This document shows, piece after piece, positions 1 to 33,079 of a DNA stretch of 64,000 nt. The stretch is taken from the NCBI GenBank assembly GCA_963920665.1, contig OY987271.1:17611350-17675349 (forward strand). The letters are read 5' to 3'. Under the pieces are notes generated by a model. It saw only the letters and a program-made list of their open reading frames with translations, had not been told where the DNA came from and did no database searches. Source of the stretch: Straminergon stramineum (taxonomy: Eukaryota; Streptophyta; Bryopsida; Hypnales; Calliergonaceae). Positions within the stretch are counted from its first letter, which is position 1; every line of letters starts with the position of its first letter. Made by a program: the position numbers and the translations under genes.

Positions 1-8
1 CAAGATCT

Positions 9-174
9 ATCGGGAGATCTCTCGTTGATCTTGTAGTGCAAGCCCGTAGTACGATGAAACTGAGGAATCCCAACTTCATCAAAGACGACTAGAAATCCGA
101 AGGCATCCAAAGATCTTCAGCTAGCAAGACATCGGGAGATCTCCCAATGCTGAGATATCGGGAGATCTCCTGAT
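9..174. repeat. Palindrome cluster, left edge of window (3 copies)
   Basis: Three copies of the 18-bp palindrome family ATCGGGAGATCTCCCGAT start at 9, 131 and 157, each with one to three substitutions. They lie just beyond the 3' end of the readable minus-strand coding sequence at 190-1551, so they may sit in its next intron or its 3' flank. The array continues off the left end of the window. Confidence 0.85.
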
Positions 175-189
175 GGCTGTGCATAGGCA

Positions 190-1551
190 ACAAAAAAAGA
201 AGGGCCAATGATTCGACATTTTGTTAGGGACGCTTACATTGTACTCGGTGGAGTGTGTTCGACCTCCATACACTGGCATCGGGTTGCCCATATCCTTCCA
301 CTTTATTCGAGCGTGCGCAAGTTGCTTAGAGAAACTCTGCTCCTTCTGTTCCCCAACAATATTCTAGTTCAACGCCTTGGAGAGATGCATTATATCATTC
401 TTCTTGGTGGAGTACGGTTCCCAGATCAGAATTATGTTGAACGTTGAGGCCAACTGCTTATGAGCTTCTGAGATATGTCTTGCCTCAACCAACTCCCGAT
501 GCGCTTGCACTGTATGCTGACCGCCAATAATGTAGTAATGGGATTTGGCGGTCAGGCTTTCCTTCTTCGGATACGAATGCCAGAATTCCACGACATTGTC
601 TATCCTGTATGGTCCTCTCTTTAGAGGTAGGACAATAATGTATCGGTTCTCAGAATGATAGTCGGCATCAAGGAGAATCCGATTCTTGATTCCCTTGAGG
701 TGTTGGGGCTAAATGCCTCTGTACACCAGTACGCCAAGAGGACCTTGTGAAGGTTCTTGTAGTACACTCGTAGTAGTTCACCTTTTGCATTGGCGAGTGG
801 TTTCTTCTCCCATTTGTATATTGGCCTAAATACCTAGTTGTACAGCTTGTTGATTTCTTGAATCTCATCGGGCTCGAGCTTCTCGACCTCAGCGTCCGTC
901 ATGTTCACGGCGCGATGCAATGTGAATTTTACAACCTTCGGCTTCTTTTTGCCCTTGCCCTTGCCCACTAGCTCCTCCACCACTTCATCTCCCGGTCCAC
1001 CGACATTGGCTTTCTGCTTCTTTCCCTTCTTACTGGGAGATGGCTTTGCAGGTGCGGGTGCAACAGTTGGCTTCGGTTGTTGCCTGGTCTCATCCAGAAT
1101 GTCCCACTCATTCTTCATCTCCTGAGGAGTCCAAAAGTGGGTTCTGTCTCGTTTCTCTAAAAACCCCTTCCGTGTAATACTCTCATACATGTCAAGATCC
1201 ATAGTGGCATAGTCTAGGATCAAACCATATTTCCTTTGCTCATCAGTCTTGGGAACCATTTCTTCGACAATGACGAGGACTGTGGCGTTATCCAGACCTT
1301 GTAGCTCTAAAACAGCTAACCCCTTTGTCATGTGACCTTTATCGTTGAAGGTAAGCTTCGGGCATATGATGACTGTTCCATCTTCCTCCTCAATCCAGTC
1401 AAGGCCCCAAGCTAAGACTTTCCGATCGCATCGGAACACTGCTCCTGGGAAGTTCTCGCCATGATACCGATACGAATGCACCCCGCTATCTCAAAATTTG
1501 AACAGTTTTATAGGTGAAAGGCTCGCAGGGAGTTCCTTTTTACCATTCATT
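190..1551 (-). pseudogene. Decayed element gene with ParB-like IIGGQHT motif
   Basis: A minus-strand coding sequence can be read from a likely splice acceptor (TTGCGCAG, ending at 1552) down to about position 190, but it is broken. In-frame stops are TGA at 1491-1493, TAG at 834-836 and TAG at 364-366, and the frame shifts once near 690-705. Coding sense resumes after each break, so one gene of at least 430 codons is likely. The middle is basic and proline-rich (Lys-Gly runs, about 920-1080). The C-terminal part (about 300-600) reads YYIIGGQHTVQAHREL, then a hydrophobic strand, then LSKALN before the last stop. This resembles the ParB/sulfiredoxin-fold pattern (IxGGQHTxxA ... LSxxxN); that assignment is by eye. 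Arrays of an 18-bp palindrome lie on both sides, in probable introns. The gene is probably part of the same mobile element as the DUF7869-type gene at 9578-13374. The function is unknown. Confidence 0.6.
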
Positions 1552-1624
1552 CTGCGCAAGAAGATAAAAATATATTAGATTGACTGGATCACGAGGAATC
1601 GAGTGTAAACTGAACACCTTCTAC

Positions 1625-2632
1625 ATCGGGAGATCTCCCGATGATCCTCTATATTTTCCTCATACTCGACTAGTGGTAATTCTATTCGGGAATTTATACT
1701 ACAAAAAATCGCACCAAGCTATCAAATTAAAAGAAGATACCGCGAGACATGCCCTTGCATTCAAATTCGAGATAAGTCGAATATGGCATTGGGAAATCTC
1801 CCGTTGCATTCACATCCTTCATTAATCAAAACCTACCATCGGGAGATCTCCTGTTGCAATCATATCCTTCATAAATCAAAGCTTGCATTGAGAGATCTCC
1901 CATTGCATTCACCTCATTCATAATTCAAAGCTGGCATCGGGAGATCTCCCGTTGCATTCTCATCCGTCATAATTCAAAGCTGGCATTGGGAGATCTCGTG
2001 TTGCATTTTCATTCGTCATAATTCAAAGATGGCATCGGGAGATCTCCTAATGCAATCACATCCTTGATTTTTCAAACCACGCATCAGGAGATCTCCGATC
2101 GCATTGACATCCCTCATAATTCAAAGCTGGCATCAGGAGATCTCCCGTTGTAGCGGCCTTCTTAATTAATCACAGCTGGCATTGAGAGATCTTCCGATAT
2201 ATCGGTCTTGACCAGATGAGTAATGATGACCCTAAATTCGTTTCGCAGTTTTAGGATGCCTATGTGCTGAGGAAGGAGTCACTATAACTGGAGTGTTTTC
2301 CATTGGGAGATCTCTTGATGGTTTCTTCAGTTGATCTTCTTTAAAAATTTTATTCACTTGTTTCTCTGTAGATTTTTTATCTCGTGAGGTAAAACCACCT
2401 ATAATCTATCGAGAGATCTCTTGATAATATTCATGTTGACTGAGTTTCATCACTTACTCTTGCTTTTTTTTTATCGGGAGATCTCCCGATGGTCTACTTG
2501 CGAAATAGTTGTCAGCAGCAGTTCGAATACCAATCTCATAATGACGGTTCAAGGTTATTTCTCCACAAAGTGAACTTGTACTGACAATGTACTGCATTTT
2601 CTTAGTCGACTTTCATCGGGAGTTCTCCCGAT
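1625..2632. repeat. Palindrome array A, 49-bp pitch
   Basis: Fourteen copies of the 18-bp palindrome family. Nine are in strict register, starting at 1788, 1838, 1887, 1936, 1985, 2034, 2083, 2132 and 2181 (49 bp apart, the first step 50). Their spacers are a diverged common sequence, roughly GCATTCACATCCTTCATAAT followed by TCAAAGCTGGC. Perfect copies stand at 1625 and 2473. Looser copies start at 2302, 2408 and 2615. The array lies 5' of the minus-strand exon whose acceptor is at 1552, so it is probably in that gene's intron. Confidence 0.9.
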
Positions 2633-2649
2633 GAACGGTTATAGGGGAA

Positions 2650-3101
2650 ATTTGACTATTTCAAATTAAACTACATTACTTGGGAACTCATGGTTCAGTA
2701 TTCCAGGGCATCGGAAATGGCATGCGGGCGTGCACTTTGGTGCCTAATCTTCAACAAACCAACTCCGACCTAATCCATGAGCTTTGTTTGAATGCGTATG
2801 TCCAACTGATGGATCATACTAAGAAGGAAATCTTGGAGCCATTTCCTTGCCAATACATATTACAAATGCAAATACCGTGATGGAGGGAAGAACTTACAGG
2901 TTGGTCCAATCATCTAGGTTTTCAGGTGCTGGTGAGGATGTTGACATTACTATGCACTCTTCCTGTTGCCACTCCAAATTTCGTGCGGATGGCCGACACC
3001 CTCTTCTCCCAAAAATACAAGCACGCAACAAAAATAACCTTGCCTCCTACAATCAACAAGAACGCATTGTCATAGGACTGTTGTTGTGGAAGCAAGACTA
3101 G
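2650..3101 (+). pseudogene. Decayed plus-strand coding block, unknown family
   Basis: A reading frame of about 150 codons runs from near 2650 to a TAG at 3099-3101, interrupted by TGA at 2878-2880. It has a protein-like composition (for example GNGMRACTLVPNLQ, then LPVATPNFVRMADTLFSQKY after the break) and is GC-richer than the DNA beyond 3840. I do not recognise the family. It lies between palindrome arrays and may belong to the same element as its neighbours. The opposite strand is also open for 64 codons at 2922-3116, so the strand is not certain. Confidence 0.35.
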
Positions 3102-3840
3102 TGCAATTGAAGACAATGGTATTCATGTTTCCCTAACAACAATGAAGCAGGTGCAATAGACCTGTCCAAACAAATGCAGTTTATCATGCTTTCCCTACTG
3201 TGGATTCAGTGCATTTTAAGACTATCAGAAAACTCCTTGCATACATGGTTCTTACTGCGGAGGACCTTGCGCAACTTCCAACTCCCTCAATGCAGCCAAA
3301 AAAAATGTAATCAATGCTGCAAAGAAAGATAGAAACGAAGTCAGGAAAAGCAAACTTACACTAACTGCGCATCTCCTCTGGAACTTTCTCCCGATGAAGG
3401 CGCCTCCACGTATCCTAGATCCAAGGTGCGCAGCAAACACAACTCGAGAGATGAAGGCGCAGACAATTGCAACGAGCCACAACGCAAACAACTGGAACTA
3501 GCCAAGGCACGACTATCAACTCTCCTCACGGACGGACGTCAAAAGCTGAAACACAAGTCACTGAAGCTGAAACATTGAAATGCACAACGAAACTAAGTCA
3601 CTCCCAACGCTGAAATGCAAAAGTGAACCACGCGCATGGGAGTGCAAGGAAGAGAGGAACGGGAGGAAGACGGAGGCTAAAAAAAATAGCTCCAACACAC
3701 ATGAGAGGAGACCCCACATTGCCAATTGCAGCAGGAGAAAAACGGATCGCACTGGAATGCGATCCTGACGTGGATCCCTCCACTCATGGCGCCGCTGATT
3801 GGGAGGGCAGACTGACTATCTATCAGAATGAATAGACCCC
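3102..3840. other. Mixed-composition stretch, no clear gene
   Basis: This stretch has balanced base composition like the neighbouring decayed coding blocks. It carries only short frames on both strands (60-80 codons) that overlap each other. It may be further decayed exons of the palindrome-bearing element. No palindrome copies are seen. The composition turns sharply AT-rich near 3840. Confidence 0.4.
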
Positions 3841-4645
3841 CAGTGGATGAGTCATGATGACTTCACCCATGGTAAGAATGAGTGGGGGAGGGATTAATTT
3901 GTTACCACTCCCTTGCAATTAGTAAGGGGGACATTAGTGAGTTATCCCTTGCTTACAACTCAGAGGGGGGATTAATTCGCTTAGAATTTCAAACTCCTTC
4001 ATCATTTCCTTAGTTATGGAGGAATAATGGTCAAGGGTTTGAAATTACTAGACACTACCACATAAAATGATCACAAAAATTGAAGTACTCATAAGATGAA
4101 GTACTCACTTGTGCAACAAGTGGGAGCAAGGTTATCCCATTGTGGCCCAAATTATGATGATTGTTTGCATTGAACTTCAAAAATGTACACAAGCATTATA
4201 TTTCTATGCTCAAAAGCCTTGCTCTCATTTTCCCATAATTTTTGTGTACATCATTTTTTTCCATTTTCAAAGCTCATCTCCTAGTAATTAACCCTCACAA
4301 AGACTTTATATACAAGTCATTAAATAATCAAGTGACTCTCACGAATTTCAAAATAAGACCACTAGAGTGATCTACATATACTTTGTTAAAGGTGATTGAG
4401 TTCTTGGACAAATAATAACCTATAAAAATAAACCCATGTATGTACCCTAAACTTCTACATGAAATGCTATTACATTTTAGGACCTCAAAGAATGATACAA
4501 AACATCATTACCAAAGTACATGAGGTCCGTAAATCAAATATTAATTATCCTAAATCAAAAAGATATGCATAGTACATATTCGAAATTAATTATTTTGTGA
4601 TGCGATTTCGACATCATATTGTATGATGAAAGCCCAAAATGATGA

Positions 4646-4662
4646 CCCTAAACCCTAAACCC
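4646..4662. repeat. Telomere-like (CCCTAAA)n tract
   Basis: Two and a half units of the plant-type telomere heptamer lie in AT-rich DNA. Short tracts like this are common in plant intergenic DNA and near promoters; nothing here shows a function. Confidence 0.8.
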
Positions 4663-5499
4663 TTGGAATTCATCATCACCAAATATATTGTACTTATTAC
4701 TAAAAATTTGATAACATAAGAAAATTAAAATTGTTATGATGAATTAAGGACTGTCATACCTAGCTAATACTATTCATTCTAATTGTAAATGACACATTAC
4801 AATCGCTTATACAAAAACAACATTACTAAATAACTAATATGATTGTTTCATCAATTTCCAAATCACTTCTTCTATAGGGAAGCCATATGAACAACGAAAA
4901 TGTACTTTTACAAGATGTACCAACTTCACATGACCCTAAACTCTAAAGAAACAAAATAACAGAAGAAGTAATACCCAAAATCATTATAAATTTGAAGAGA
5001 AGTAATGAAGAAGGTTAGCCCTAAAACTACATAAAGTTATAGTTGAAAAAAATGGTGGAATAGGGGGTAAAACTAATATGGGTTAGGGGATAAACAATAG
5101 GGGGGAAACAAATATAGACTGACAATTCAACATAAAGTACATGGAAAATTATGTAGTGGGTGGCAAAAAAAAGAAACATTGGGAAAAAATGTAGATGGTG
5201 GAATAAAAAAATATGAAATATGGGAATAAATTAGAACTTAGTTACTTATATGAATTGTACCTTGTTCAAATCTACCACCCTAATCTTTATTTGAGTAAGG
5301 CATATAATTATGAATATGTTATTCTTTTTCCACTCATTTTCTACCCCTATGTTTTTCCATTTTTTAAACTTTTGCATATTAGTTACTCTTTTAAAATAAT
5401 TCCATTATGTGCTCCTTCATTTTTGTATGTGCTTAGGATTATTTTCTTTTAATTGTACTTTCATTATGGTTTTCCTTTCTCATTTTGGGGGTTTCAATC

Positions 5500-5763
5500 C
5501 CCAATCATTTCTTATCTTTCCCATTTTTTTTCAGTCCCCATTTTTTTTCATAGTTTCCCCACTTTATTTTCTTTCCCCAATTCTTCCATTTCCTTTTTTT
5601 TTCTTTCCCCACTTTCTTTTTCTTTCCCCATTTTTTTTCCTTCCCCATTTTTTTCCTTTCGGACCCCATATTTTTTCTTTCCCCACTTTTTTTTCTTTTG
5701 GACCCCATTTTTTTCCCCCATTTTTTTCCTTTGATTCCCCATTTTTTTTCCTTCATCCATTTT
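5500..5763. repeat. Polypyrimidine tract of CCCCA(T)n units
   Basis: About 260 bases are almost entirely pyrimidine on the plus strand. They are built from irregular units of 13-20 bases, CCCCA followed by a run of T and then C or CTTT. Translation gives only low-complexity Pro/Phe or Lys/Gly-rich peptides, so I do not call a gene. Such a strand-asymmetric tract could form triplex (H-DNA) structures. Confidence 0.85.
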
Positions 5764-7177
5764 AATGACATTTGTCTAGTGTACTTACAACGTTTGGCTT
5801 TTTTTCTTGTTCTACTTATTGAACTAAGTGCTCGAACTTGTCAACACAATTTGAAGTTCTTTTCCTGTAGAAATGAAAAAATCTCAAGACAATTAAAAGG
5901 ACTAGAACAATTCATGGTTATAGGTGATACGGTCATAGTTCACAATAGTCACTATAATTAGAAACTTCTTTTCTATTGTTAGGAAAAGAAGTTAACAAAG
6001 GAAATTGGTGTGCAAAAAATTCCCCCCAAAAGTTTTGGGGGCTTTAGGCTCACAAGTTCCACACTCAAAGTTCACAGGTGCACGGCTCTAACCTCGCATG
6101 CTAGCATCATTGGTAGTAGGGTTAAATTAGAACACAAACTTTGTTGAAGAGTGACTCACTTTTGTATTTTGCATACACTTGCAAGAATAAACTATTTGAA
6201 AGGAGATTGTCGAACTTGTAGAACTCATTGAAGGACATGTTACTTACATATTTCTTCAAAATCAAGGGAAGAGGATCGGTGGTGATCAACAACATTGTTA
6301 TGGTACTTATAATATTTTGGGGGGCACGTTTTGAACTAGCCAGAGTGTATTACTTAGTTTACATTAGAGAAGTTTCAATCTAGTTTTCTGGTATGTTATA
6401 TGCCTAATTCATCATAAATACTTATCCCATTCATAAACCCTAATTTCTTGTTGGAATATACAATTCATATGCTTTGATTTTAAATATCACATGGACAAAT
6501 TCTTGAAGTATATTAGGCTTCAATGATTAAGTATTAGACATTGAATGCCCATGTTTTTAAATAAGCCAAATCGGAGAAGTCATCATTTTATTACCCTAAA
6601 CCTAAGCATATATCATATGAAATACTAATTATATGATTGGTCATTTATTTACATTCAACTTTCGGGTCTACAAATTTAAAAAAACACACACTGTGATAAG
6701 CATTAGAAGGAAAACCCTAGATTGAGGTTTCCCAAAGTTCTCCCATTGAAGATTAAAAAGAACAAGCAAACATCCTTCGCTCAATTCCATAGAAGGATCG
6801 CACACCCATAGATAGGGTATGATATATTTGGTCTCGACACACAATTATTTACTCTATAAAAATTCAATCAATAAAAAACAAGAGAATGTGAAAAATGATA
6901 ACATCAAATTAGAATATAAAATGCATTTCAAAACATTCAACTTACTCTATCCTCTAAGAAAGATTTCAAAAACTGAAATCCATCCTTCCAATCCATAAAA
7001 CGGCACTAGAACCTTCCAAATGTACTCTTAAAAAAAAGAATATATCTTCTAGAAGGGTCTCAAGCAAAGAGAGATCTTCAACAATATAGATTAAAGAAAA
7101 TGTCCCCCAAGGAATTAAATCATGACCCGAAATTTAGAACCACATAATTATGGAAGATATTCCAAAATGAATGTATG

Positions 7178-7285
7178 CCTAAACCCTAAACCCTGAAATC
7201 TTATACCTTGAAACCCTGGACTCTATTCTGATTTTTGTTTCCTTCTTTGTCTTTTTCCCTAAACCCTAAAACCCTAAAACCCTGA
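7178..7285. repeat. Telomere-like CCCTAAA tracts
   Basis: Two short runs of CCCTAAA and CCCTAAAA units (7178-7197 and 7258-7285) are separated by about 60 bases of AT-rich DNA. They lie near the right edge of the AT-rich block. Confidence 0.75.
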
Positions 7286-7484
7286 AGTAAGTCATGGAAC
7301 TTTAAGTAACTGGGGTGAAGTAATTGAAAACGTGCATGAAGGGACCAGTACTTTGGGCAACTTAATGATTATGAGTACGACTTTTTCATAACAATAAAAT
7401 ACACGTGTGTGGATGTGTTTTAAATGGCTTGAACTCTTCTGCTAGATCGTACGCAATAATAGTCAAATAAAGTTAGTAACTTAC

Positions 7485-8511
7485 AATAGGTAGATGCCGA
7501 ACCCAAGAATATTCAGTCGTAGAGGGAGACCTAACGGACTAGAAGCAGCACATTGAAAGCAGGCCCTTCGAAGAATCAGTGGAAGATTCGACTTCAAGAC
7601 CCACACAGACACTGTTCGCCTTTGTATATTTGAGCCGTTATCGAAGTCTGACGAACTCATCTGTAGCATTTAAGCTAGCAAGCCGGCACATCCTCCAAGA
7701 CTGCAGTCAACAATCTCAAAGAAGACCGCATCTTTAGATTCGGCCTGCACACAGTTGCGCACGACCATTAAGAGTGCTCAGAGAATCCGAAATGCAAGAA
7801 CATAGCGCCCTTATGAAATTTAGGTGGGAAGTACGAATTCTAGATTTGAGGTTTGTGATGACGCCTAACGACCACAGTCTTTCTCTCTTTTGCAGACATG
7901 AACGAAGTAGTGGAATGAAGGTGAGAAGAGTAGGAAATTGTAACTTCAAGTTCATTGGCACAAGAGGTTTAAGTCGATTGATTTTCGTAGCCCCTCACTG
8001 TAGGCATCATTCTCTTTTCTTCGCAGTGGTTCACTAAGTTGCAGAATTCCAGAATGACGACAATGTAGTGATGGACTGATGATGCCCGGAGTGACAATGC
8101 AGTGGAATCGCAGACTGAGTGAGTAGGAAGATGTGATGAGTATCAATGTCGTCTTTGTCGGAATGTGGAACCTGTGCATGTCTAGGGGGCGCCGATGGAT
8201 TTTTGATTGATTCACCTAGAAGTCAGTCTTCATAGATGAGAGTGAATGCGCGCATTTGTGAACAATTACAAAGTACACCGATTCCACGTCGCTAGTTTGT
8301 GGCCTATGTAGGATGGCGAGATCATAGATTTGGAACTCTGTATCACTGAAGCGGAATGATTGTTTTCCAAAGTAAAACTTTGATGCAAGTGTTTGTAGCA
8401 TAGAGTACAAACCCGACGTCGAGAGCAAGGAGGAAGTACTGTAGTCTTCACCCATCAGACAGTTCGTACAGTCATATATTACGCGTATAGATGACCCTAC
8501 GAATCACATTT
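7485..8511. pseudogene. Decayed coding block, strand and frame unresolved
   Basis: GC-richer DNA with protein-like frames that are all interrupted. On the plus strand one frame runs from about 7486 to 8037 broken only by two TAG codons. Another frame is protein-like from 8281 to 8511 with several TAG/TGA stops. On the minus strand a 79-codon frame (8455-8216) is open, and a frame ending near 7484 meets a GTAAGT donor. A plus-strand donor-like GTATTG at 8513 and an acceptor at 9577 bracket palindrome array B, so this block may be an upstream exon of the DUF7869-type gene. I cannot decide between the readings. Confidence 0.35.
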
Positions 8512-8541
8512 GGTATTGTACGGATGTCTTGGATTCGCGCC

Positions 8542-9493
8542 ATCGGGAGATCTCCTGTTGATTCTTTGGCGGACTTTTAGTGAATTACTTTATTATCGGG
8601 AGATCTCCCGATGTCTCTACAGTGCCATAATTCTGGAACTTGATTTCAAAGATGACCAGTGGAGTTCTTCTAGGTCAATCGGATGACATCCTTGGACAAT
8701 CTGGAAGGAGAACATCGGGAGATCTCCCGATGACTTCTGAACACAGAGATTCTACAAGATCAACGAGAGATCTCCTGTTGATTTCAGTGATCTAAATTTC
8801 TGCATTATCATTGCGAGATCTCCAGATGATCTTGGGAAACATTAATTTAGCATTCTCAACAGGAGATATCCCGATGAAAGAAGTGTACAGAAATTTTCCA
8901 ATATCATTGAGAGATATTCTGATGACTTCAGTCCATCCATATACGAGAAGATCATGAAGAGATCGCTTTATGATTTGAGTGTGGAAGCAGTCCGATTCGC
9001 TATCATCGGGAGATCTCCCGATGATTTCTTTCAGGAATCATTCCGCTTGGGAATGGGGACCTCATTTTTATTTTGAATGTTGAGATTTGCCATTGAATTG
9101 TTTCATACTTTCGGGCTGTGTGCATAGGGAGATCTCTCGATGAAGTGTTATACACTGTGGTTGTTCTGTCCATCGGGAGATCTCCCGATGCAATGTTACG
9201 GTCTGTGGTTGTTCTGTCCATCGGGAGATCTCCCGATGCAATGTTACGGTCTATGGTTGTCGGGTCTATCGGGAGATCTCCCGATGGTCATGTGTTATTC
9301 AGAGATGGGAGAGGTCTGTCTAGACATCTGCCACTCTCGGGTTCTCTTGGGCATTCATATTGTGAGATTGTTTGATGTTCGGATGACTTTATTGAAGTGG
9401 TGGGATCGAATATTTGTAATTCATTATATTACTACTTTCTTCGACTACAAATATTTTCTGCTACACAGTCCTTCAATCGGGAGATCTCCCAAT
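8542..9493. repeat. Palindrome array B, 48-bp pitch
   Basis: Thirteen clear copies of the 18-bp palindrome plus one very degenerate copy at 8954. Runs at exact 48-bp pitch start at 8714, 8762, 8810, 8858, 8906 and (degenerate) 8954, and again at 9124, 9172, 9220 and 9268. Perfect copies start at 8595, 8714, 9005, 9172, 9220 and 9268. The spacer of the second run (AATGTTACGGTCTGTGGTTG and following bases) is unrelated to that of array A. The array lies just upstream of the acceptor at 9577 that opens the DUF7869-type coding sequence, so it is probably intronic. Confidence 0.92.
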
Positions 9494-9577
9494 GAATTTG
9501 TAGTGACTGACCCTAACTTGTTGTGGACAGTGTCATTGACTTTTTCTAACTTCAGCATTGGGTCCTTTATTTTGCAG

Positions 9578-12500
9578 ATATAGAGATTCAGAACCTATGC
9601 GAGATATGGTTTCTATCGACAGTGGGGAAGAGTCAATGGATTCAATCTCAAAGTCGATGGATTATGCAATTACGCCATATATTGGCGATGATGCTGACGA
9701 GGGCGAGTCACAGGAGTCTTGCACCTGGACTTCGCCATTGAATGTAGGGGACATGGTTAAGCTTTATCATCGAGGATTTGGTGAAGTCGGAGTAGGGTTT
9801 GTAGTGGAGGCAAGACCTCAAGGCGAGTGGCTTGGAGTTCCTATTCCATTCGAGCCGTGGATATTTGTTCTCATACACCCGTCATCGTTTGTCGTTGAAG
9901 CTCAATATTTTAGGGTCACACCTTGCCATACGGGTTTTACAACGCTCTCACATGTCCTAAACCGGACGGTGTTGTGGAGTGTCGCAGACGTTGTTAAATG
10001 TATTGAAGATCCCCATTTCGATTCAAGTCCATTTATTTGGCAGTAGCAATGGATTGGGCTGGAGGTTCATCGGAATGATGCGGTGGGTGTGTTACTGTCA
10101 TCCGGACAAATAAATTGTTGGAGTTTGGATGATAGTTTTCAGAATACTACCCTTGGTGAGGGACACGTAGGTGTGACCGTCCTTGACATTTTTGTGGGTG
10201 ATCATGATGTAATCATGACCCACACTTGCTGGCCAATTTCAGAGTGTTGGTTCCCTAATGGTCGAAGTTTGAAAGACATGATGGAGCACTTTTGTGCCTT
10301 TTCTGATGTACAGGATCCCCTTGCCTATCTAGGTGGAAGAGAGAAGGCGCCGTATCGATTCATAGTTCGTCGACCCTCCTTTTGTCATACGGAGACACAA
10401 TTCACACGTAAAACTAGCGACGATGAAATTCAGAAGGTCAATTCAGAGAAATGCTGCGACAGTCATTGCTGCCAGTTTTTTCCCCAAGCAAAATCATTGA
10501 TGGTCAGACAAAGATATTTTTCGAAGTCTTTTGAAGAGCATCGAGATTATGGAATCGCTGCTGGCGGGCAATTGCATAGTGTGGATTGGACGCGGAAGCG
10601 GAAATATATTACTTTGGAAGGATCAGAAGTTTGTGCCACTAAATGGTACATTATTCACGGAGTACCGAAGTCCACCTACCACAATTACATGGATTTGTAC
10701 AAGCAAGGTGTGGTTTCCTCGACCCACGGGAACAAAGGGATCAAGCGTCCTCGACTTCGAACAGTGCAGGTCACTGGTACAATAAAAGCCATCATCGACA
10801 ACAGTGGTGACCAAATGCTGCACCAAATGCGGTCCATAGGGAATGGGAGAGTAGATACATTGAAGTTCTTGCATGCGGGAAACAAGTAGAAGCGCGTTCA
10901 TGCTAATGCTAATGAAGTATTCCAGTGAACCTTTTATATGATTGGATAGAATTATTATGTGTTTCTTTCGGAGTTGAGTGCATCGGGACATCTTCCAATA
11001 CATTTTTCTTTACAAACTTCAATTTAGTCTGCCCTTATCGGGAGATCTCCCGATACATGTCTCCGAATGGACTTCTTTCCATTGCTACCTCATCGGGAGA
11101 TCTCCCGATAAATGTTTCCCGATGGACTTCTTTTCATTCCTTCCTCATCGGGAGATCTCCCGATACATGTCTCCCAATGGACTTCTTTCCATTGCTACCT
11201 CATCGGGAGATCTCCCAATAAATGTTTCCCGATGGACTTCTTTTCATTCCTTCCTCATCGGGAGATCTCCCGATACATGTCTCCCAATGGACTTGATTTT
11301 ATTTCTATCCCATCCAAAATTCTCCAAACTGTTGTTTTGCGAAATCATTTGTCAACACTATTGCTATTGTGATTGTTGTTTACGGTCCTTTAGAATTCCA
11401 TACCCTGACTGAATCTGATGTGTAGTTCTGGTTTTCTACTTGCAGTTGAATGAGGAGTGTGGCCTTTGTACAGTCAGCCAGTCCACGAATAGTAGAATAA
11501 AAAAGGAACACTTCAATAACATTTCCATTAAGCCTATAGGCAGCTCTTTTGCCAAGTGTACGAAGTGCCATGAACTGCAACAATTCATTCTAAAATCACC
11601 AAAAGGAAGCTTGGACTTTGTGGAGTTCATGAAGCAACGAGGTGAACATCTGAATCATCAAGCATCCTGCCATCGATTGTATGCCACATGGCCTGAAGAA
11701 TCTAAGAAGAACCCTCAGGAGATACTGTGCATCATTCACGACAAAATGGATACAAGGAAGACGGCTCTTCCAAGAATGCGGGTGACAACAAAGGCCACAC
11801 AAGGTTTGGGTCAACTTCCTATGAGTGTAACTGGTATGGTCGCTCATAGTCATGCCGACGGTGCATATGCCCATTATGGACCAGCGTGTTGGCCAAGCGA
11901 CTCGAACTTCACTATCTCATTGTTGGCTAAGTTGTTTCGTTGACTTGAAGGTCCACCGATTTGGGAGACTGGCAACCTCTTCCCCTATCCGCTTGCGAAT
12001 ACATTGTTTGAGGCATTACTTAGAGGAAAATCTAAGTGTATGGACGCCTTGAAATTGATTCCAGAGGATGCTCAACATGGAGCTCGCCCTCTTCCTAAGA
12101 AGCTCTATCTTCAGCTTGACAACTCCGTTAAAGATAACAAGAACCAGTATTTCATGGCGTTCTTACCCTTGCTTACTGTAGGAGGAGTATTCCAGGAAAT
12201 TCAGGTGGGTTTTCTACTAGTAGGACATACTCACGAGGACATTGATGCATATTTTAGCCACCTGTCCAAGGCTTTGAAGAGCAAGAATACATTTGTCGTC
12301 GCGGACCTTATGAAAGCCTTCATGGAGTCCCAAGAACTGTCATTTATGCCAAAATTCATCCAAGAGGTGGCAGATTTCAAGTCATTTGTCAAGGGTTACC
12401 TGTACAGCGGCACTACTAAACTGATTGGTTTAGGGGAGATGCACCTCTTCTGGTTCTATGTGGATTGTCATAGAGTCCCTGTCATGAAATATAAGAAGTC

Positions 12501-13374
12501 AGCAGTTGATTCACAGTGGCTACGATCTGATGGACCTTCGCGATGCTTGTGGAAGAAAGACCGAAGCAATCAGTCGAAGCTACCTCCGAGTTGCCCTAAA
12601 CCTGTTCCTTTCAAGCCCATGTGGGGTAGCGAAGTTCCCTCAGCATCCGGAAATCAAGAGAAGGCAGTGGAAGCGGCACGGAAAGCGACTTTGAACAAGG
12701 GTTTGATTATGTTAGGACTAGAGAAGTACATTGACTTTTGGGAAGATGGAATGACCAAATGCAAGGGATTTGCGACCGCCTTTTCTCCATATGTGGAGTA
12801 TTGGAAGCGTGTGTTACACGAGGTGAAGGAGCTACTTCCGGACTGTCCTACGAAATTGGTTGAAGGCTTCTAGCCAAAGTACGATTGGAGGGTGCAAAAA
12901 TCATCTTCCCAGGAGCCGACAGTTAATCCTATCGACATCCTTCCAGAGGAAGAGGAATTGGAACCTTATTGCGGACCCGCAAATGAGGTGCCAAGGGAAA
13001 GCTTCAATCCTTGGGTTGATATTCGTCCAAGTTTGTGGGTTCTGCTCCGACCCGAAGACCCCTCAATTTGTATTGTCTGGCAAGGAAGAGCATTGTGCAA
13101 GGTTTGCAGAGAGGAAGGCCATGTCAACAACGAGAAGTTCTTGCTCCAATATTGGAGACCGGATAATTCTAAAAGTTCGATGAAATTGAGGTACCAAAAT
13201 TGTTGGTACGGGAAGTGGGTTGTTGAGAATACACCTCCCGCTTGGGTGGATGCATCTTCTGTAGTATACGTGACTTGGTTCAAGAAAGTTAACCCGAAAT
13301 CACGGACCATTCCTAGGAAAAGTAGAGAAGCTGCCCTTGCAAATTTGAATAGGGCAAACGAGGTGGACCCTTGA
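9578..13374 (+). pseudogene. DUF7869-type mobile-element protein gene, decayed
   Basis: Two exons, 9578-10925 and 11446-13374 (TGA stop), read in one direction and encode about 1,090 codons. I recognise the family from recalled plant proteins annotated DUF7869. Exon 1 ends with the recurrent IHGVPKSTYHNYMDLYKQG region. Exon 2 holds IIHDKMDTRKTA, then the core YLQLDNSVKDNKNQ and VGHTHEDIDAYFS (about 12094-12270), then a C-terminal CKVCREEGHVNNEKFLLQYW segment. The acidic repeats of the core suggest a nuclease or transposase fold, which is not proven. Breaks are in-frame TAG at 10044-10046 and 10887-10889, TGA at 11941-11943 and TAG at 12871-12873. The expected donor at 10925 reads CAG|TGAACC, as if one G of GTGAAC were lost. 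The acceptor CTTGCAG at 11445 is good. The intron contains a six-unit palindrome array. The gene looks inactivated but not old enough to have lost its frame. Confidence 0.75.
10982..11274. repeat. Palindrome array C, 55-bp pitch, inside an intron
   Basis: Six copies of the 18-bp palindrome start at 10982, 11037, 11092, 11147, 11202 and 11257, exactly 55 bp apart. Those at 11037, 11092, 11147 and 11257 are perfect. The spacers alternate between two related versions (ACATGTCTCC... and AAATGTTTCC...), giving a 110-bp higher-order unit. The array fills the middle of the intron (10926-11445) of the DUF7869-type gene. Confidence 0.95.
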
Positions 13375-13403
13375 TCGACTATTGTGTCCTAATCTTTACG
13401 GCC

Positions 13404-14441
13404 ATTAGGAGATCTCCCAATTCGCTTCTTTATCTGTCGTAACTATGGCAGGCCTTTCGGCAGATCTCCCGATGCTTCATTTTGCTTGACGTGGTATTGG
13501 CAGGGCCATCGGGAGATCTCCTGATGTTTCTTTCTGACCGACGCGAAAGTGGGAGCCTCCGTGTCCACATATGGTTTCTTGTCTTTCAAGGTTTAGTTAG
13601 GGACTACGAGTTCTTGTAAAATCTTCTGTGGTGTGAATGCCTTCACTTTATTCATGAAGACCGGAATGTGTTCTTTTTATTCCTTCAGTGCAACCTCCAA
13701 ATTCCATTTCTTAGTCATAGTAGGTGCTGGCACTCCATTGGCTTTGTTTTTCAATATTTTCTTGTACTTGATCTCTTAAGCGATTATTAAAATGTTGCAA
13801 GACAATTTCCTTCTTTCTTGCACTGTAAGTTACTATTTCCAATATTCATTTTCATTCGTTCTATTCCATTTTAAATGACTTGGTCTTGTCATTCTTTGGA
13901 ATCTTCTACCTCTCTGCTTTCAAATGTTTATGTTTCAAACGACTTTGTTAATATCAATTAAGGCTAAGTTTTTACATTCATTGTTCATGCCCGGAATACT
14001 TTAGGAGGGCATAAGATGCATAAGACCACAATGTTCTGGTATACAAAATGATCACGCTAGCCTTACAAGGCTTGCACTGTATTGGGAGATTTCCAGGTAA
14101 CTTACTCCCCACCTCCATTCCAAGTGGTAGCAATTACTTCATCATTCAGAGTTTCAATCTTCCCTGACATGTATGTTCGTGTGCGTATGGGGCCTGGCAC
14201 CACCCTCAAAGAAACCTAAACTTTTGTGTATCTGGATATCTCCCGATGTATTGCCTAAAATGAATCCATGCGAGTCCTATTTACTTCATCATTCACAATT
14301 AATGTATATCCTAAGATGCACATTCATGTGCTTCAATTGACCTATCGGGAGCCGTGCAACACACTTACAAAAATTAACTTCACAGTATCTGGAAATCTCC
14401 CGTTGTAATGCCTCACACCATGCATCGGGAGATTTTTGCGT
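13404..14441. repeat. Palindrome array D and scattered degenerate copies
   Basis: Three copies at exact 52-bp pitch start at 13404, 13456 and 13508, immediately 3' of the DUF7869-type coding sequence. More degenerate copies start at 14081, 14230, 14387 and 14424. None is perfect. The 500 bases between the two groups show nothing else recognisable. Beyond 14441 no further copies are seen, so this is the likely right limit of the palindrome-bearing element. Confidence 0.85.
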
Positions 14442-17400
14442 TTTCTTAATTTTGGACTTTCAATAGTCCAAAAGTAGTTAAATATGGCATCCATATGATT
14501 TTCTCTATTTTCAAATAATCATCTTATTCATGAAGTATTTACCACAATAATCTCATAATACAAAATTAAAAGCAAGGGATTTAAATTAGAACTTTCCCTT
14601 TTCATTTTTGCATTTGTTAAATAATCCTTCCACCAATGTATTGGTTTTCAAGTCGATTTTCATAGTAGAAAAGAAAGGGTGGATATATCTTAGTATGAAC
14701 TTCCCTATTTTTTGGCAAGTTTTCTCCTTGTTCAAGGAGATTTTCTCTTTTGTCTCCTACAAACACTTCTCATGTGGTTGTTTAGGGGTGCATGCAAGTT
14801 GGGCGACCTTGGATAGAGGTGAATATGAGTGGAAAAAGAGAGCAATTCTTTTTTGATCAAACTAAACACTTAGGTTGTAGAGGCCGATGCAGATAGGGCA
14901 AACGCAATTTTAGGGCAACCACGGGTGCAAGAGGTAGCTAGCCCCTTCTCATTCTTCTCCAAAATGCCATGCTTTGTATGTTTTGGGCAACCTCTTGTCT
15001 TAGGCACCATTGGGTGGACAAGTGAATCAACCCCTCTTCTTTTCGAAACCCCCTTCTTTTCCTTGGGCAACCTCTAGCCCTAGGCAACATCTTATCTAGG
15101 GTGATCTCTAATGGAGGAAGGAGATACTACTTTCTCCTTCTCCAAAAAAATGCCATGCTTTGTGTTCATTGGGTGACCTCTTGTCTAAGGCAACCTTAGA
15201 TAAAAGAGGGAGTCAACACCTTCTCCTTCTCTAAAACATGCCATGCTTTGTATTCTTTGAGCAACCTCTAGTCTAGGATGACCTTAAATTAGTGGCATCT
15301 TCACCATTGCAACCTCAACTGGTCCCTAACTAAGTTGGAATACTAATGCTCATTAGATGAGGAAAGTGTGACAATTTCTTTCTTTTATGCTAAGATGGCA
15401 TTGAACCTTGTTAAGTTTTTAAAACATGTAAATAACCTTCATATGGAATGGCATCTCATTTCAATATTCTCAATTACTATTGAAGTAGAATAATTACCCT
15501 TTCAAGAATTACCCCTTTAGTATAATAGGTTTGATCCTAGGGAGACTATCAAGTAGGATCAAGGAACTAATAGGTTTGATTTCCAAATTGAATAGCACAA
15601 TTCAAAGGCAAAGAGATTTCAATCTGACAACAAATTTGGAATGTTGGCATAACACCCAACTAGATCAACTAAACTCCAACAACCAAATGTTCATAAAACC
15701 AAATTAGAAATTTTTACATTATGCTTCAAAGGATTCACAAATAATTTAAATTACAATGACTCAACCAAATCAACTACACAATTTTAACAACTTCAGCATT
15801 TACAATGATTCCAATTTGGTAGACCCATGGATCGCAAGGCAATATTTAACTAAACTTAACACAACTACAATAGTTTTCAACTTAGGCTACACCACATAAT
15901 TCAATCACTCTAATGACACACACAAGCAAACACTCAAATTCAATGATTCTTGTGCTTCCAATTAGGCAAACACACTCACATCATAACACATGCGTTCTAC
16001 ATTCCACATGCATCAATTATACAATCATATCCCTTATACAATTCCACAAAGTAGAACACAATCACAATCCATTAGACAATTTAACTTCTAATTTGTATTA
16101 ATTATAAGAAAAAATTACAAGAAAGACAACCAAATTGATTTAGACTTGTCCGATGTGGGTCCTAGAAAAATGAACTACACTGCACCTAATAGGAATCCAC
16201 AGATAGGTGCCGAATCATCCAACAAACCTACCCTTCCACTTATCACCTAGCCCTTTGAATTCTATGAGAAACTACTTAGAGTTAACATTCATACCACAAA
16301 ATTGGATTATCGTGCCAACTAACATTATTTAACACTTGATTATCTACTTGACATCCAAAATGAGATGAAAAAGCACCCAAAAATTGAAAATTAGTATTTC
16401 AAAACTTAACCAATAAGTCTACAATTATGGAGTTTCTTTATGGATGTGCATAGAATAATATTTATGTCATTTCTTAGAGTGTATAATTGTGCAATACTAC
16501 ATTTATAGCATTGTTTAAGGAAATTTATAAAAAAAATGATTCTTTATTTTGATATGTATATAAATTGGACTCAAATCCACTCATAGTGAAAGAGCTTTAA
16601 ATAGAGCAAGCAAAGAAAATTAGCCTCGTGTGAAGGCACAATTCATTGTTGGTGTAGACCAAGGATTATGTTGCAAGTCTCATACCCAAGACATTGGTAC
16701 CAATGACTTGTTCCCCATAAAAATATAGGACAAAAATTTTAATAAGGGAATATTTTCTATTATTTATTGCAGATCTCAAAGATACATACTAATTGTGAAA
16801 TATTTGTCACATTGATTACAAAAGTAAAGAAACAAAGGGTGGAGATTTATGTAAGAACTTCCCCTTCCAAATTTTGCAATTCTCCAAGACTCTTCCTAAT
16901 AATGAAAAATTATTCCTGTTTTTTATAGATAAAAACCAAAAAGTAGAGGTTTAGTTAGAACATCTCCATTTTATTTTGTAAATTTTTATCAATTAGAAGG
17001 AGATTACAAATTCCTTCACCCTTTTTCCTTTCCACTTGAAAATTTATTTATTAATGATTTTTGGCTCTTAGGATCCTTATACGATATAAAGACCCTAGAA
17101 TAAATTATTTTTTGAGTTTTTGAAAATCATTTTCTACTTATTTCTCCTCAATTTTTTCCATAGGGTTTTGGGAGCCCAAATGCCTTTTTCCTTTTTTCTT
17201 TTCTCTTGGAAAGATTTAAAATAATTCTTTTGGGTTGTTAGGGTCCTTATAAGGTAGGGGGTCCCAAAATTTTTGTTATTTATTGAATCGCCCATATACA
17301 TAATGCAAATTTTTTTTGATTTGCAAACTCCTTGTAATTATGACATTGAAATTAAACAATTTGGTTTTCCAACTAACACTTTTGATGTCATTTAAGAATG

Positions 17401-19597: not shown

Positions 19598-22130
19598 GAA
19601 AGATATTCCTCGTCCCCATCTTCTATCAAAATTTCAGACTAAAATGTGCAAATCTCTAGTCACATGTACCTGCCCAAAATTTCTATGTTGCCAAAAAACA
19701 CATGTTGGTCCTTCAAGGGTTAAAGCTATCCCTTGGGCACATGTTGTCTAATAATTTTAAAGAAAAAGAATTAACAATCTATTCATAATGAGTTACCCCA
19801 AATCACTATGAGTTGCCAAAAATGTAGTTTGGTGCTTTACGGGTTAACTACTTTTTATATGATGTGCCATTTGAAAAAAAGATCTGGAATATCTTGAATG
19901 CAAGGTGCAAAGGTCCATGTATTGAATGTCAAATTTGAATTCTCTTGTGCAAATATTTTGTAATTTTGTCAAACAATTATTATAGATTTTTTCTTAAACT
20001 ATTGTGTGAACAAATTCACAAAAATGAAGTGGAATTTCAAAATGAGAATGATTTTCATAGTGAAAATGAAAATTGCCCTATAAGAAGTTGTCCCTACAAA
20101 AGTTTGCCCTTTACTGCCCTCCTATAGTCACCATATTTGTAGACCCTCTAAACCTACAGTCGCCCTTCCAAGTCAAAACCACATGTGCCTTCTAAAGTGC
20201 CACGTAGGTACCATAATTATTCTTCCCAAAAATGAATTCTCCAAAAAACATTAAAATCTTGCTAATGTAATTGCTTTTATTTGGACATTCTCTCAACACA
20301 AATTTTGGCTGTATGTTAGATACCTCTATTATATTTGAAACTTGTCATGAAAATAACTAACATTATTGCCTATCTAGTAGTTCGAGTTTCCAAAGTTGGA
20401 TACTGCGTCTTTTGCCACAAAATAGAGTCAAACTATGTTGACCATACAAGGCATGGCCCAAAACTTCTTTTCTTCTAACTTCAAATGTTGTAATTTTGCC
20501 ATCTGTGTGGTCAAAAAGTCTAATTTTTTTCCACAAATTCTCATAGTAGTCTAGTACAATTTTTTTTTGGTTAAAATTTTGAAAAATGTTTTACATTTTA
20601 ATTTGTGCTCATTGCACTAGAAAGTGACAATTTTGGACACTTTTTGTGAAAAATAGTCAAAGAACTTTAGGGGGGGAAATACTTTGCAATGTTAGTTGAG
20701 GACATTGGTTATAGCTTATTTAATAGGAATCAACTCATACAAGTTTATTGTTTGTGTATATTATCTATATTCAATACTACTACTCATGTACTATTTGCAA
20801 CAATACCCTCCTTCCATGAAGAAGTATCCATTTTCCTTTAGTTTGCCAAAACTAGATTTTGAATTGAAGAATATTTCCAAATTTTGGATGAAAATGTAAA
20901 AGAATGATTACATAACCATCTAAGTGGATGAAATCATGATATAAAGTCAGAACACTATGCATTTAGTATAATAGAAGATATAAACAACTTCCTCCCTTCA
21001 AACGTAGTCAAAAAAGTTTAGATTTGTCACATCAACTTGTTTTCATGGAAAAAATGTCTTTAATACTAAAAGGTATAGGAAGTCCAATTTGAATTGTAAC
21101 ATGGTGTTTTGTGTGTATTTGATAAAGAAGGTGCAAGAATTGAAGTGCAAGGTAGTGACGTTAGTTTGTATTCATATTGTGTTNNNNNNNNNNNNNNNNN
21201 NNNNNNNNNNNNNNNNNNNNNNNNNNNNNNNNNNNNNNNNNNNNNNNNNNNNNNNNNNNNNNNNNNNNNNNNNNNNNNNNNNNNNNNNNNNNNNNNNNNN
21301 NNNNNNNNNNNNNNNNNNNNNNNNNNNNNNNNNNNNNNNNNNNNNNNNNNNNNNNNNNNNNNNNNNNNNNNNNNNNNNNNNNNGGACGTTCGGATTTATC
21401 AACCCTGTCATTATTACACCTCCTATATGTCCAAGAAGTTACAAAATGGTCACATATTCTACTTATATGATGTTTATTTGAGCATAGTAAAGCATATTTG
21501 CTAAAATGATATCCAAATGAAATGTGTTAATTGTTGAATTTTCATTCCAATGATACATGCACTACCATATTTTTGTGTATAAGTTGTGTTTTATATGTCA
21601 AATATGGTACCATTTATATGGTTCCTATAAACTTTTAAAGTTAATTCCTAAACAAGACTCAAGGAGTTTGAACATAGCTCTTGTTTTCTTGACTACTCTT
21701 GTCACAAACATAATTCCTCATTCATGTGGAATAATTTTGATGATTGCCATGGTTGAAATGAAAGAAGATTTATATAGCTCTCCTATGAAAAAAAAAGATC
21801 AAGCAAAATTGTACAATATTTGAGAAAATGCCACCGTTGACAATGTTGATGTAAGATGTTCCATAAGGTTGCACTTTGTATATACTTTGAAATTGGAGGG
21901 TTGAAATCAAAATGTTCAAAAGTGTTGTCCAAACTCTAATTTTTCTTTTGTGGGTACACATCATCATGGTATTGATGATTAATTTTTTTCAAATTATTTT
22001 GAGATGTGGAAAAAAAGATATGAAGATGTGAAGTGATGCCCTAGAGTACCTTCACCATTTTCAAAAAATTCATCAAAAATTGCACTCTTGATAATTTCTT
22101 AATCCAGTAAGGACACTGCAGACCAGAGTG
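19598..22130. other. AT-rich intergenic DNA with assembly gap
   Basis: No gene is supported on either side of the gap at 21184-21383. Frames that cross the gap consist of undetermined bases and are artefacts. The phrase AAGGGTTAA and its variants recur here (about 19715 and 19848) as elsewhere in the repeats of this window. Confidence 0.6.
21184..21383. other. Assembly gap of 200 N
   Basis: Exactly 200 undetermined bases, a conventional placeholder length, so the true distance is unknown. Confidence 0.98.
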
Positions 22131-23459: not shown

Positions 23460-28892
<5,433 letters not shown>

Positions 28893-32883: not shown

Positions 32884-33079
32884 GGCGCCGGCGGCGCGGC
32901 GGCAGCAGGAACTTCACCTCGCAATGACGACAACAACCACTTCTGGGTTCCTCAATGCAGAGCCCGATAGAAATATCGCATATATCAGCACTTTCAGCAC
33001 TTCGGAAATTCGTAGTTTATTCCTGCGGTGTTAGAATCCTACTTTAGTTTTATTCAGGTAGGAGGCTCGAAATCCGCAC

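What the first reader, a model, noticed from the sequence alone, without database searches (positions are those of the whole stretch)
1..14441. Regularly spaced arrays of one 18-bp palindrome, each with its own spacer
About 43 copies of ATCGGGAGATCTCCCGAT (12 perfect) occur in the first 14.4 kb and, as far as I could read, nowhere in the other 50 kb. Arrays have pitches of 49, 48, 55 and 52 bp, yet their spacers are unrelated. If these were ordinary minisatellites the whole unit would be shared. Instead only the palindrome is shared, so it is either the thing copied (a tiny palindromic mobile sequence) or a site kept by selection. A perfect two-fold site at roughly five helical turns fits a homodimeric DNA-binding protein loaded along one face. 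A known parallel is the short motif arrays bound by VANC anti-silencing proteins in VANDAL elements of Arabidopsis.
Basis: partly seen in the sequence, partly recalled or inferred. Interest (0 to 1): 0.92.

Follow-up and report, generated by a model that had tools for sequence, protein, structure and literature searches.

The report
Transposon with co-evolving palindromic protein-binding arrays
A large plant jumping gene carries dozens of copies of one mirror-symmetric 20-letter DNA site in its control regions, and a related lineage carries a version changed symmetrically in both halves, which suggests that the element's own protein recognises them, perhaps to escape being silenced by the host.

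Summary
The window holds the right 14.49 kb of a 20.9-kb DNA transposon in an unnamed 326-Mb plant genome, probably a moss. It has 26-bp inverted ends, 4-bp target duplications and a DUF7869 protein whose predicted fold resembles DDE transposases. It carries 57 sites of a 20-bp palindrome, CATCGGGAGATCTCCCGATG, none in the mapped exons of the two window genes. Within arrays, spacers are diverged tandem duplicates; between arrays and element families they are unrelated.

The strongest result: a second subfamily (B) carries CATCTGGAGATCTCCAGATG, a symmetric change in both half-sites. Upstream of gene 1, 9 of 9 A loci have the A type; of 15 B-side loci, 14 have the B type and one decayed locus has no site. 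Hybrid sites are rare (23 places). Gene 1 and the transposase N-terminus diverge fast between A and B; the DUF7869 exon stays 71-75% identical.

Best reading: arrays of binding sites for an element-encoded, two-fold-symmetric DNA-binding protein, working like VANC/VANDAL anti-silencing or CACTA TnpA. Anti-silencing itself is inferred. Membership in VANDAL or CACTA is not supported, nor are the "one face of the helix" and "tiny mobile palindrome" ideas.

The parts
1..14490 (.). Right 14.49 kb of a 20,881-bp DNA transposon (whole element G000:C9:17604959-17625839)
   Evidence: long blastn matches of mostly 89-97% identity to three other copies; ends
14465..14490 (-). Right terminal inverted repeat (26 bp, ATGCCATATTTAACTACTTTTGGACT read inward)
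   Evidence: identical to the left end of the same copy; same ends in other copies
14491..14494 (.). 4-bp target-site duplication CCAT, also found at the left end
   Evidence: duplications match in 5 of 5 copies with the A palindrome and both ends seen (own, e23, e28, e33, e6); B1 3 of 4 bases
241..1550 (-). Gene 1, first coding exon (limits inferred); no Pfam family; broken in this copy by in-frame stops and a frame shift
   Evidence: 102 matches of the relative P0121 in this genome
8..175 (.). 3 palindrome sites in the intron that follows the gene-1 exon
   Evidence: splice position inferred from relatives
1624..2633 (.). 14 palindrome sites just upstream of gene 1 (main pitch 49 bp)
2634..8540 (.). 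Central part of the element without palindrome sites; present in the other copies
8541..9494 (.). 13 palindrome sites just upstream of gene 2, two runs at 48 bp
9597..10915 (+). Gene 2, N-terminal exon (52-56% identical between subfamilies A and B; limits inferred); two in-frame stops in this copy
10981..11275 (.). 6 palindrome sites at 55-bp pitch in the gene-2 intron
11446..13374 (+). Gene 2, C-terminal exon with DUF7869 (PF25273), RNase H/DDE-like fold in prediction; two in-frame stops in this copy
13403..13526 (.). 3 palindrome sites at 52-bp pitch just after gene 2
14229..14405 (.). 2 palindrome sites near the right end of the element

Best explanation
The palindromes are arrays of binding sites, inside a large DUF7869-type DNA transposon, for a two-fold-symmetric (probably homodimeric) DNA-binding protein that the element itself encodes. 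Shown: in the places examined the sites lie in this element and its relatives, mostly outside the mapped coding parts (promoter regions, introns, 3' ends); they change by transversion 2.4-4 times less often than their flanks; and two subfamilies carry versions that differ by one symmetric base pair while their array spacers are unrelated. Inferred: the protein is gene 1 or the N-terminal part of gene 2, the two parts that diverge fastest between the subfamilies among those compared. Inferred and least certain: binding keeps the element's chromatin open against host DNA methylation (VANC-like anti-silencing), perhaps with auto-regulation and help in transposition.
For: Genome-wide counts: 2332 places with up to 2 mismatches for the 18-mer against 3 for the reversed control; 257 exact A 20-mers, control 0; 425 B sites with up to 1 mismatch, control 0; hybrid half-sites 23; the symmetric variant C5/G16 0. 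Upstream of gene 1, 9 of 9 A loci hold G5/C16 (55 of 79 sites, no T/A). Of 15 B-side loci, 14 hold T5/A16 (124 of 126 sites, no G/C), and one old decayed locus has no site at the cut-off. Spacers are 0.60 identical within A, 0.58 within B and 0.250 between (null 0.252; 56 spacers from 9 A loci and 93 from 11 B loci). A-B protein identity is 71-75% for the DUF7869 exon, 52-56% for the gene-2 N exon and 39-49% for gene 1. Transversion rates at sites are 0.24-0.41 of the flanks, with all four intervals below 1. Conservation is two-fold symmetric, left-right r = 0.85. 49 of 57 sites lie outside the seven ORFs and exons mapped. A gene-less family with unrelated inner sequence shares the ends and the palindrome. 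Two intron read-through proteins from other sources fit the motif at 19 of 20 bases, a top score reached by 0 of 300 control palindromes (tails chosen by hand). For anti-silencing: dead copies show C>T at CG 8.3% and CHG 7.8% against CHH 1.2%, while the four-copy majority sequence keeps CpG o/e 0.77, like the gene-rich part of the window (0.79) and unlike two intergenic stretches (0.22, 0.25).
Against: No binding, expression or methylation data. A and B are two lineages, so the symmetric switch is one evolutionary event however many loci show it. All-change divergence of sites equals that of flanks (0.071 against 0.072), and transitions are somewhat higher at sites, because CG and CHG decay dominates; only transversions show constraint. 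In the 49-bp array the palindrome is only the 8th best of 49 windows. No recognised DNA-binding domain was found in either candidate. Gene-like CpG content could also mean recent arrival, and the central part of the window's own copy is lower, 0.55. One array lies in an open frame (7 of 57 sites), so sites are not strictly non-coding. In pieces of one B element only 13 of 21 sites are T/A.
Confidence: 0.66

Rival explanations
1. The sites are operators and transposition sites only: an element-encoded protein binds them to repress or time its own genes and to pair the ends (as TNPA does in CACTA), with no role against silencing.
For: The nearest site lies 113 bp (window) and 95 bp (B1) upstream of the start of the gene-1 match, and spacings of 163 bp (A, 9 times) and 154 bp (B, 10 times) recur there. 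Weak sites (5 mismatches on the left, 4 on the right) also lie within about 130 bp of both ends. TNPA binding to subterminal repeats is described in PMC2613891 (passages).
Against: Most of the 57 sites are kilobases from the ends, in introns and across 20 kb, which is more than end pairing or one promoter needs.
Confidence: 0.3
2. Structural role: the palindromes act as hairpins in RNA or extruded DNA; the symmetric A/B change is then base-pair covariation.
For: Self-complementary consensus; G5-C16 to T5-A16 is a paired change.
Against: The would-be loop and its neighbours (AGATCT) are among the most conserved positions, and decay at paired positions is often one-sided (G/T or A/C at 5/16). 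Sites occur in introns, upstream DNA and an open frame alike. No Rfam match in window 1-16000. No pair-count test was run.
Confidence: 0.06
3. Ordinary minisatellites whose palindrome survives by chance or by exchange between copies.
For: Arrays do arise by tandem duplication of whole units; one 24-nt inverted match links an intron site and an upstream site.
Against: The same 20 bp recurs in arrays with unrelated spacers, in unrelated elements, and in a symmetric alternative form. Transversions are depleted at sites.
Confidence: 0.04
4. The palindrome is itself a tiny mobile sequence.
For: Many copies with different flanks.
Against: No flanking target duplications beyond shuffles for lengths 2-10; in 19 of the 20 clusters listed and grouped, sites lie in or beside elements, one cluster unchecked.
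Confidence: 0.02

Closest known systems
VANDAL transposons with VANC anti-silencing proteins (Arabidopsis; PMC5735166 and PMC10398659, passages read)
   Same: Short motif in tandem repeats in introns, intergenic and terminal non-coding parts; motif differs between related families; target repeats diverge rapidly.
   Different: VANC motifs are 8-9 bp and not palindromic as printed; here 20 bp with two-fold symmetry and a symmetric switch. Different transposase family, 4-bp duplication and inverted ends; no Pfam match for gene 1; no binding or methylation data here.
CACTA (En/Spm, Tgmt*) transposons with TNPA (PMC2613891, passages read)
   Same: Element-encoded protein recognises repeated motifs that diverge between subfamilies while the transposase stays more conserved; TnpA is linked to demethylation (passage in PMC10398659). 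Large element (20.5 kb in soybean).
   Different: CACTA motifs are subterminal (12 bp in En-1, 17-20 bp in Tgm1); ends begin CACTA; 3-bp duplication. Here the sites fill promoter regions and introns, ends begin ATGCCA, 4-bp duplication.
Pfam DUF7869 (PF25273) proteins
   Same: Gene 2 is a clear member (E 1.7e-36 for one ORF of the exon); named relatives in Physcomitrium, Ceratodon, Riccia and Montipora.
   Different: No paper in the library searched holds the term DUF7869, so I found no description of such elements.

Membership tests
DUF7869 (PF25273) | Score above the family's curated cut-off | tested here: met
   126 bits against 26
Cut-and-paste DNA transposon | Terminal inverted repeats and target duplications | tested here: met
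   26-bp ends; 4-bp duplication in 5 of 5 copies with the A palindrome and both ends seen, 3 of 4 bases in the one B copy
Cut-and-paste DNA transposon | DDE/RNase H transposase | tested here: inconclusive
VANDAL/VANC | Mutator-type (MULE) transposase and VANC-family protein (recalled) | tested here: not met
   No MULE or other transposase domain above cut-off in the ORFs scanned; gene 2 is DUF7869; gene 1 has no Pfam family. Not every ORF of the element was scanned
VANDAL/VANC | Short motif in tandem repeats in non-coding parts, differing between related families | tested here: met
   (8 of 57 sites lie in ORFs)
VANDAL/VANC | Encoded protein binds the motif and removes methylation | not testable with these tools
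   needs binding and bisulfite data
CACTA (En/Spm) | Ends beginning CACTA and 3-bp duplication | tested here: not met
   ends begin ATGCCA, 4-bp duplication
CACTA (En/Spm) | TNP2-type transposase | tested here: not met
   none above cut-off in the ORFs scanned; a weak Transposase_23 match (E 0.023, below cut-off) in the relative P0038 only
Other superfamilies with 4-bp duplications (Sola, Ginger, Academ; recalled) | Their transposase families | not tested
   no library of these was on hand; Pfam gave DUF7869 only

The most novel reading that the evidence does not exclude
A plant DNA transposon group unrelated to VANDALs has independently evolved sequence-specific anti-silencing: a homodimeric element protein reads a 20-bp palindrome spread over promoters and introns, and lineages escape one another by switching a single base pair symmetrically in both half-sites while rebuilding their arrays.
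Probability: 0.42. Interest if true: 0.9.

Novelty: new variant of a known kind. Interest (0 to 1): 0.77.

Why it matters
How transposons evade plant silencing is known in detail for few systems (my recollection). This group offers a clean natural experiment: two subfamilies in one genome, a target that differs by one symmetric base pair, a better conserved DUF7869 exon, and two fast-diverging coding parts as candidates. Which part reads the site, and whether it removes methylation, can be tested directly. It also gives a function to look for in the uncharacterised DUF7869 family, found here in named mosses, a liverwort and a coral.

Tried and rejected
Site as a mobile unit: no flanking duplications. 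Helical phasing: pitches do not share a phase, and the phase test is dominated by arrays. Inter-array flank homology: 6 pairs at score 6 or more against 3.1 expected (maximum 8 in 200 shuffles); the best pair scores 9, equal to the highest of the shuffles (mean 6.8), though it also shares changes inside the palindrome. A fold for gene 1: the model is poor (pTM 0.43), no PDB match at E 0.001 or better, no convincing profile match. I had recalled a ParB-like 'GGQHT' motif; nothing tested supports it. DUF6551 is hit by 3 of 31 members at best E 0.011 only.

Relatives in viral and prokaryote collections: 0 found. The first peptide test for the motif in 160 relatives was weak: over all residues, 4 windows at 18 or more against 0.9 expected per shuffle and 13 at 17 or more against 11.3. 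In the stretches not covered by other relatives, 3 hits at 17 or more against 0.60 expected, 2.5% of controls as good; one of the three (P0117) is probably chance. The second test used 13 hand-picked read-through tails and the symmetric rule, so it is post hoc; P0069 fits C5 or A5 and could be a decayed A site. P0029 scored 19, but I judged it coding and did not count it. Codon-position test of the left array: uninformative, 43/42/45. Exact counts for B and for A5/T16 did not complete. The spacer comparison left out 5 of the 25 upstream stretches (L025, L026, L042, L051, L052). The VANC and CACTA papers were read as passages only; other papers were seen as listings. Searches for prior reports; the library is partial, so none of this shows that the element is unpublished.
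Full report
WHAT IS THERE. The palindrome is real: 36 matches with up to 3 mismatches, all in the first 14.4 kb, with 0.01 expected. The conserved unit is the 20-bp CATCGGGAGATCTCCCGATG with sharp edges. When the host genome became searchable (326 Mb, 59 contigs, window at C9:17611350-17675349), 2332 places matched the 18-mer with up to 2 mismatches, against 3 for the reversed control. Three other loci align with the window's element, in long blastn matches of mostly 89-97% identity. The element has 26-bp inverted ends ATGCCATATTTAACTACTTTTGGACT, and 4-bp target duplications match in 5 of 5 copies with the A palindrome and both ends seen (own, e23, e28, e33 and the gene-less e6). In the one B copy examined, 3 of the 4 bases match. 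The window's copy is 20,881 bp, 14.49 kb of it in the window. The four copies carry 57, 65, 68 and 61 sites; of the 57, 41 are in the window.

WHERE THE SITES ARE. In the window's element 49 of 57 sites lie outside the seven exons and ORFs mapped. They are upstream of gene 1, upstream of gene 2, in an intron of each, after gene 2 and near the ends. Eight lie in ORFs to the left, seven of them in one open frame where the spacings are multiples of 3 in the window's copy; one spacing in e33 (88 bp) and one in e28 (91 bp) are not. None lies in the gene-1 exon or the gene-2 exons. The central 5.9 kb has none.

TANDEM DUPLICATES THAT DIVERGED. Within arrays, spacers are 0.48-0.73 identical against 0.26-0.31 for shuffles, and palindromes 0.73-0.93. 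In 4 of 5 arrays the palindrome is the best-conserved 20-bp window of the unit; in the 49-bp array it ranks 8th of 49. Between arrays the flanks are unrelated, apart from one 24-nt inverted match. So each array grew by duplication of a unit with its own spacer.

CONSTRAINT. Among four copies the total divergence of sites equals that of flanks (0.071 and 0.072). With sites defined in one copy and measured in the other three, transversions at sites are 0.24 to 0.41 of the flank rate, with all four 95% intervals below 1. Transitions are not lower; they are somewhat higher at sites, because the copies decay by C>T at CG (8.3%) and CHG (7.8%) against 1.2% at CHH and 0.4% for other kinds of change. 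I read this as the mark of host methylation. The four-copy majority sequence nevertheless keeps CpG o/e 0.77, close to the gene-rich part of the window (0.79), while two intergenic stretches have 0.22 and 0.25; the window's own copy has 0.77, 0.55 and 0.70 in its left, central and right parts. The conservation profile is two-fold symmetric, r = 0.85 over 251 sites of four related copies.

THE SYMMETRIC SWITCH. Gene 1 falls into a subfamily close to the query P0121 (63-75% for the long matches) and one at 44-50%, with a few lower ones. I fetched the stretch upstream of gene 1 at 24 loci besides the window. All 9 A loci carry G5/C16 (55 of 79 sites; the rest mostly transition products; none T/A). 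Of 15 loci at or below 50%, 14 carry T5/A16 (124 of 126 sites, 2 C/A, none G/C), and one old locus (38%) has no site at the cut-off. The spacers are 0.60 identical within A, 0.58 within B and 0.250 between, equal to the null of 0.252; the commonest pitches are 49 and 51 bp (9 A loci with the window and 11 B loci). Exact A sites number 257, B sites with up to one mismatch 425, exact hybrid sites 23 and C5/G16 sites 0. In pieces of one B element, 13 of 21 sites are T/A, and in pieces of another 19 of 21. A and B proteins are 71-75% identical in the DUF7869 exon, 52-56% in the gene-2 N exon and 39-49% in gene 1. This is one switch between two lineages, not many independent ones.

OTHER ELEMENTS AND OTHER GENOMES. 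Two loci without matches to either gene (C1:6.07 Mb, both ends seen; C1:0.69 Mb, one end seen) share the end sequence and the A palindrome; blastn found no match of 150 bp or more to the window's element. Of the 20 clusters that I grouped from the listings (the first 50 places of each), 13 lie within 17 kb of a gene-1 or gene-2 match, 2 have element ends, 4 proved to hold sequence of B elements but no ends in the stretches fetched, and 1 (C2:13.74 Mb) was not checked. Among 13 read-through tails of relatives from other sources, two fit the motif at 19 of 20 bases and one at 17; 0 of 300 control palindromes reached the top score. The tails were chosen by hand, so this is suggestive.

MECHANISM. 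A symmetric site, symmetric constraint and a symmetric switch fit a dimer of identical subunits. The switch runs with two element-encoded coding parts, so the reader of the site is probably one of them. Dispersion over promoter regions, introns, 3' ends and termini, array turnover and subfamily-specific motifs are what is described for VANC targets (PMC5735166, passages). TnpA of Spm is the other precedent: it binds repeats and is linked to demethylation (PMC2613891 and PMC10398659, passages). I put recognition by an element-encoded symmetric protein at about 0.85, and anti-silencing as its main purpose at about 0.45. Auto-regulation and end pairing are compatible with it and cannot be separated here.

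WHAT IT IS NOT. It is not a VANDAL or a CACTA element by the features tested, not a free palindromic mobile unit, and not an array phased on one helix face.

Noticed in passing
L006:5779-6360 (minus), G000:C9 about 17607128-17607709, left of the window: Open frame inside the same transposon matching NIF (NLI interacting factor-like) phosphatase, E 1.3e-15.
   Followed up: partly
L006:6854-7573 (minus), left of the window: A palindrome array with pitches of 84, 87 and 153 bp, all multiples of 3 in the window's copy, lies in a 240-aa open frame and is read as repeated (A)SGDLPM-like words.
   Followed up: partly
G000:C1:6072567-6090951 (L016-L018): Gene-less relative with 6.4-kb inverted arms 99.9% identical and a 4-bp duplication GGTA: a very recent giant palindrome.
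   Followed up: partly
G000:C11 (17.4 Mb): This contig holds 33 of 82 listed gene-2 matches though it is about 5% of the genome, and many of them are rich in stops; perhaps a non-recombining (sex) chromosome.
   Followed up: no
B elements, e.g. G000:C4:10361719-10361738: 9 of the 23 hybrid A/B sites lie 31 bp (7) or 86 bp (2) after the gene-2 match: a conserved hybrid site.
   Followed up: no
window 13-36 and 8752-8775: 24-nt perfect inverted match joining part of a palindrome plus flank in the gene-1 intron and in the gene-2 upstream array; hints at exchange through the palindrome.
   Followed up: partly
window 27489-27818 and 30535-32913: Host genes: a protein kinase exon (probably of a receptor kinase) and a threonine dehydratase.
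   Followed up: no
window 21184-21383: A run of 200 N, an assembly gap or withheld stretch.
   Followed up: no
18-mer in literature: The 18-mer occurs in three unrelated papers (listing only); I recall it as a cloning-vector sequence around a BglII site, a coincidence.
   Followed up: no
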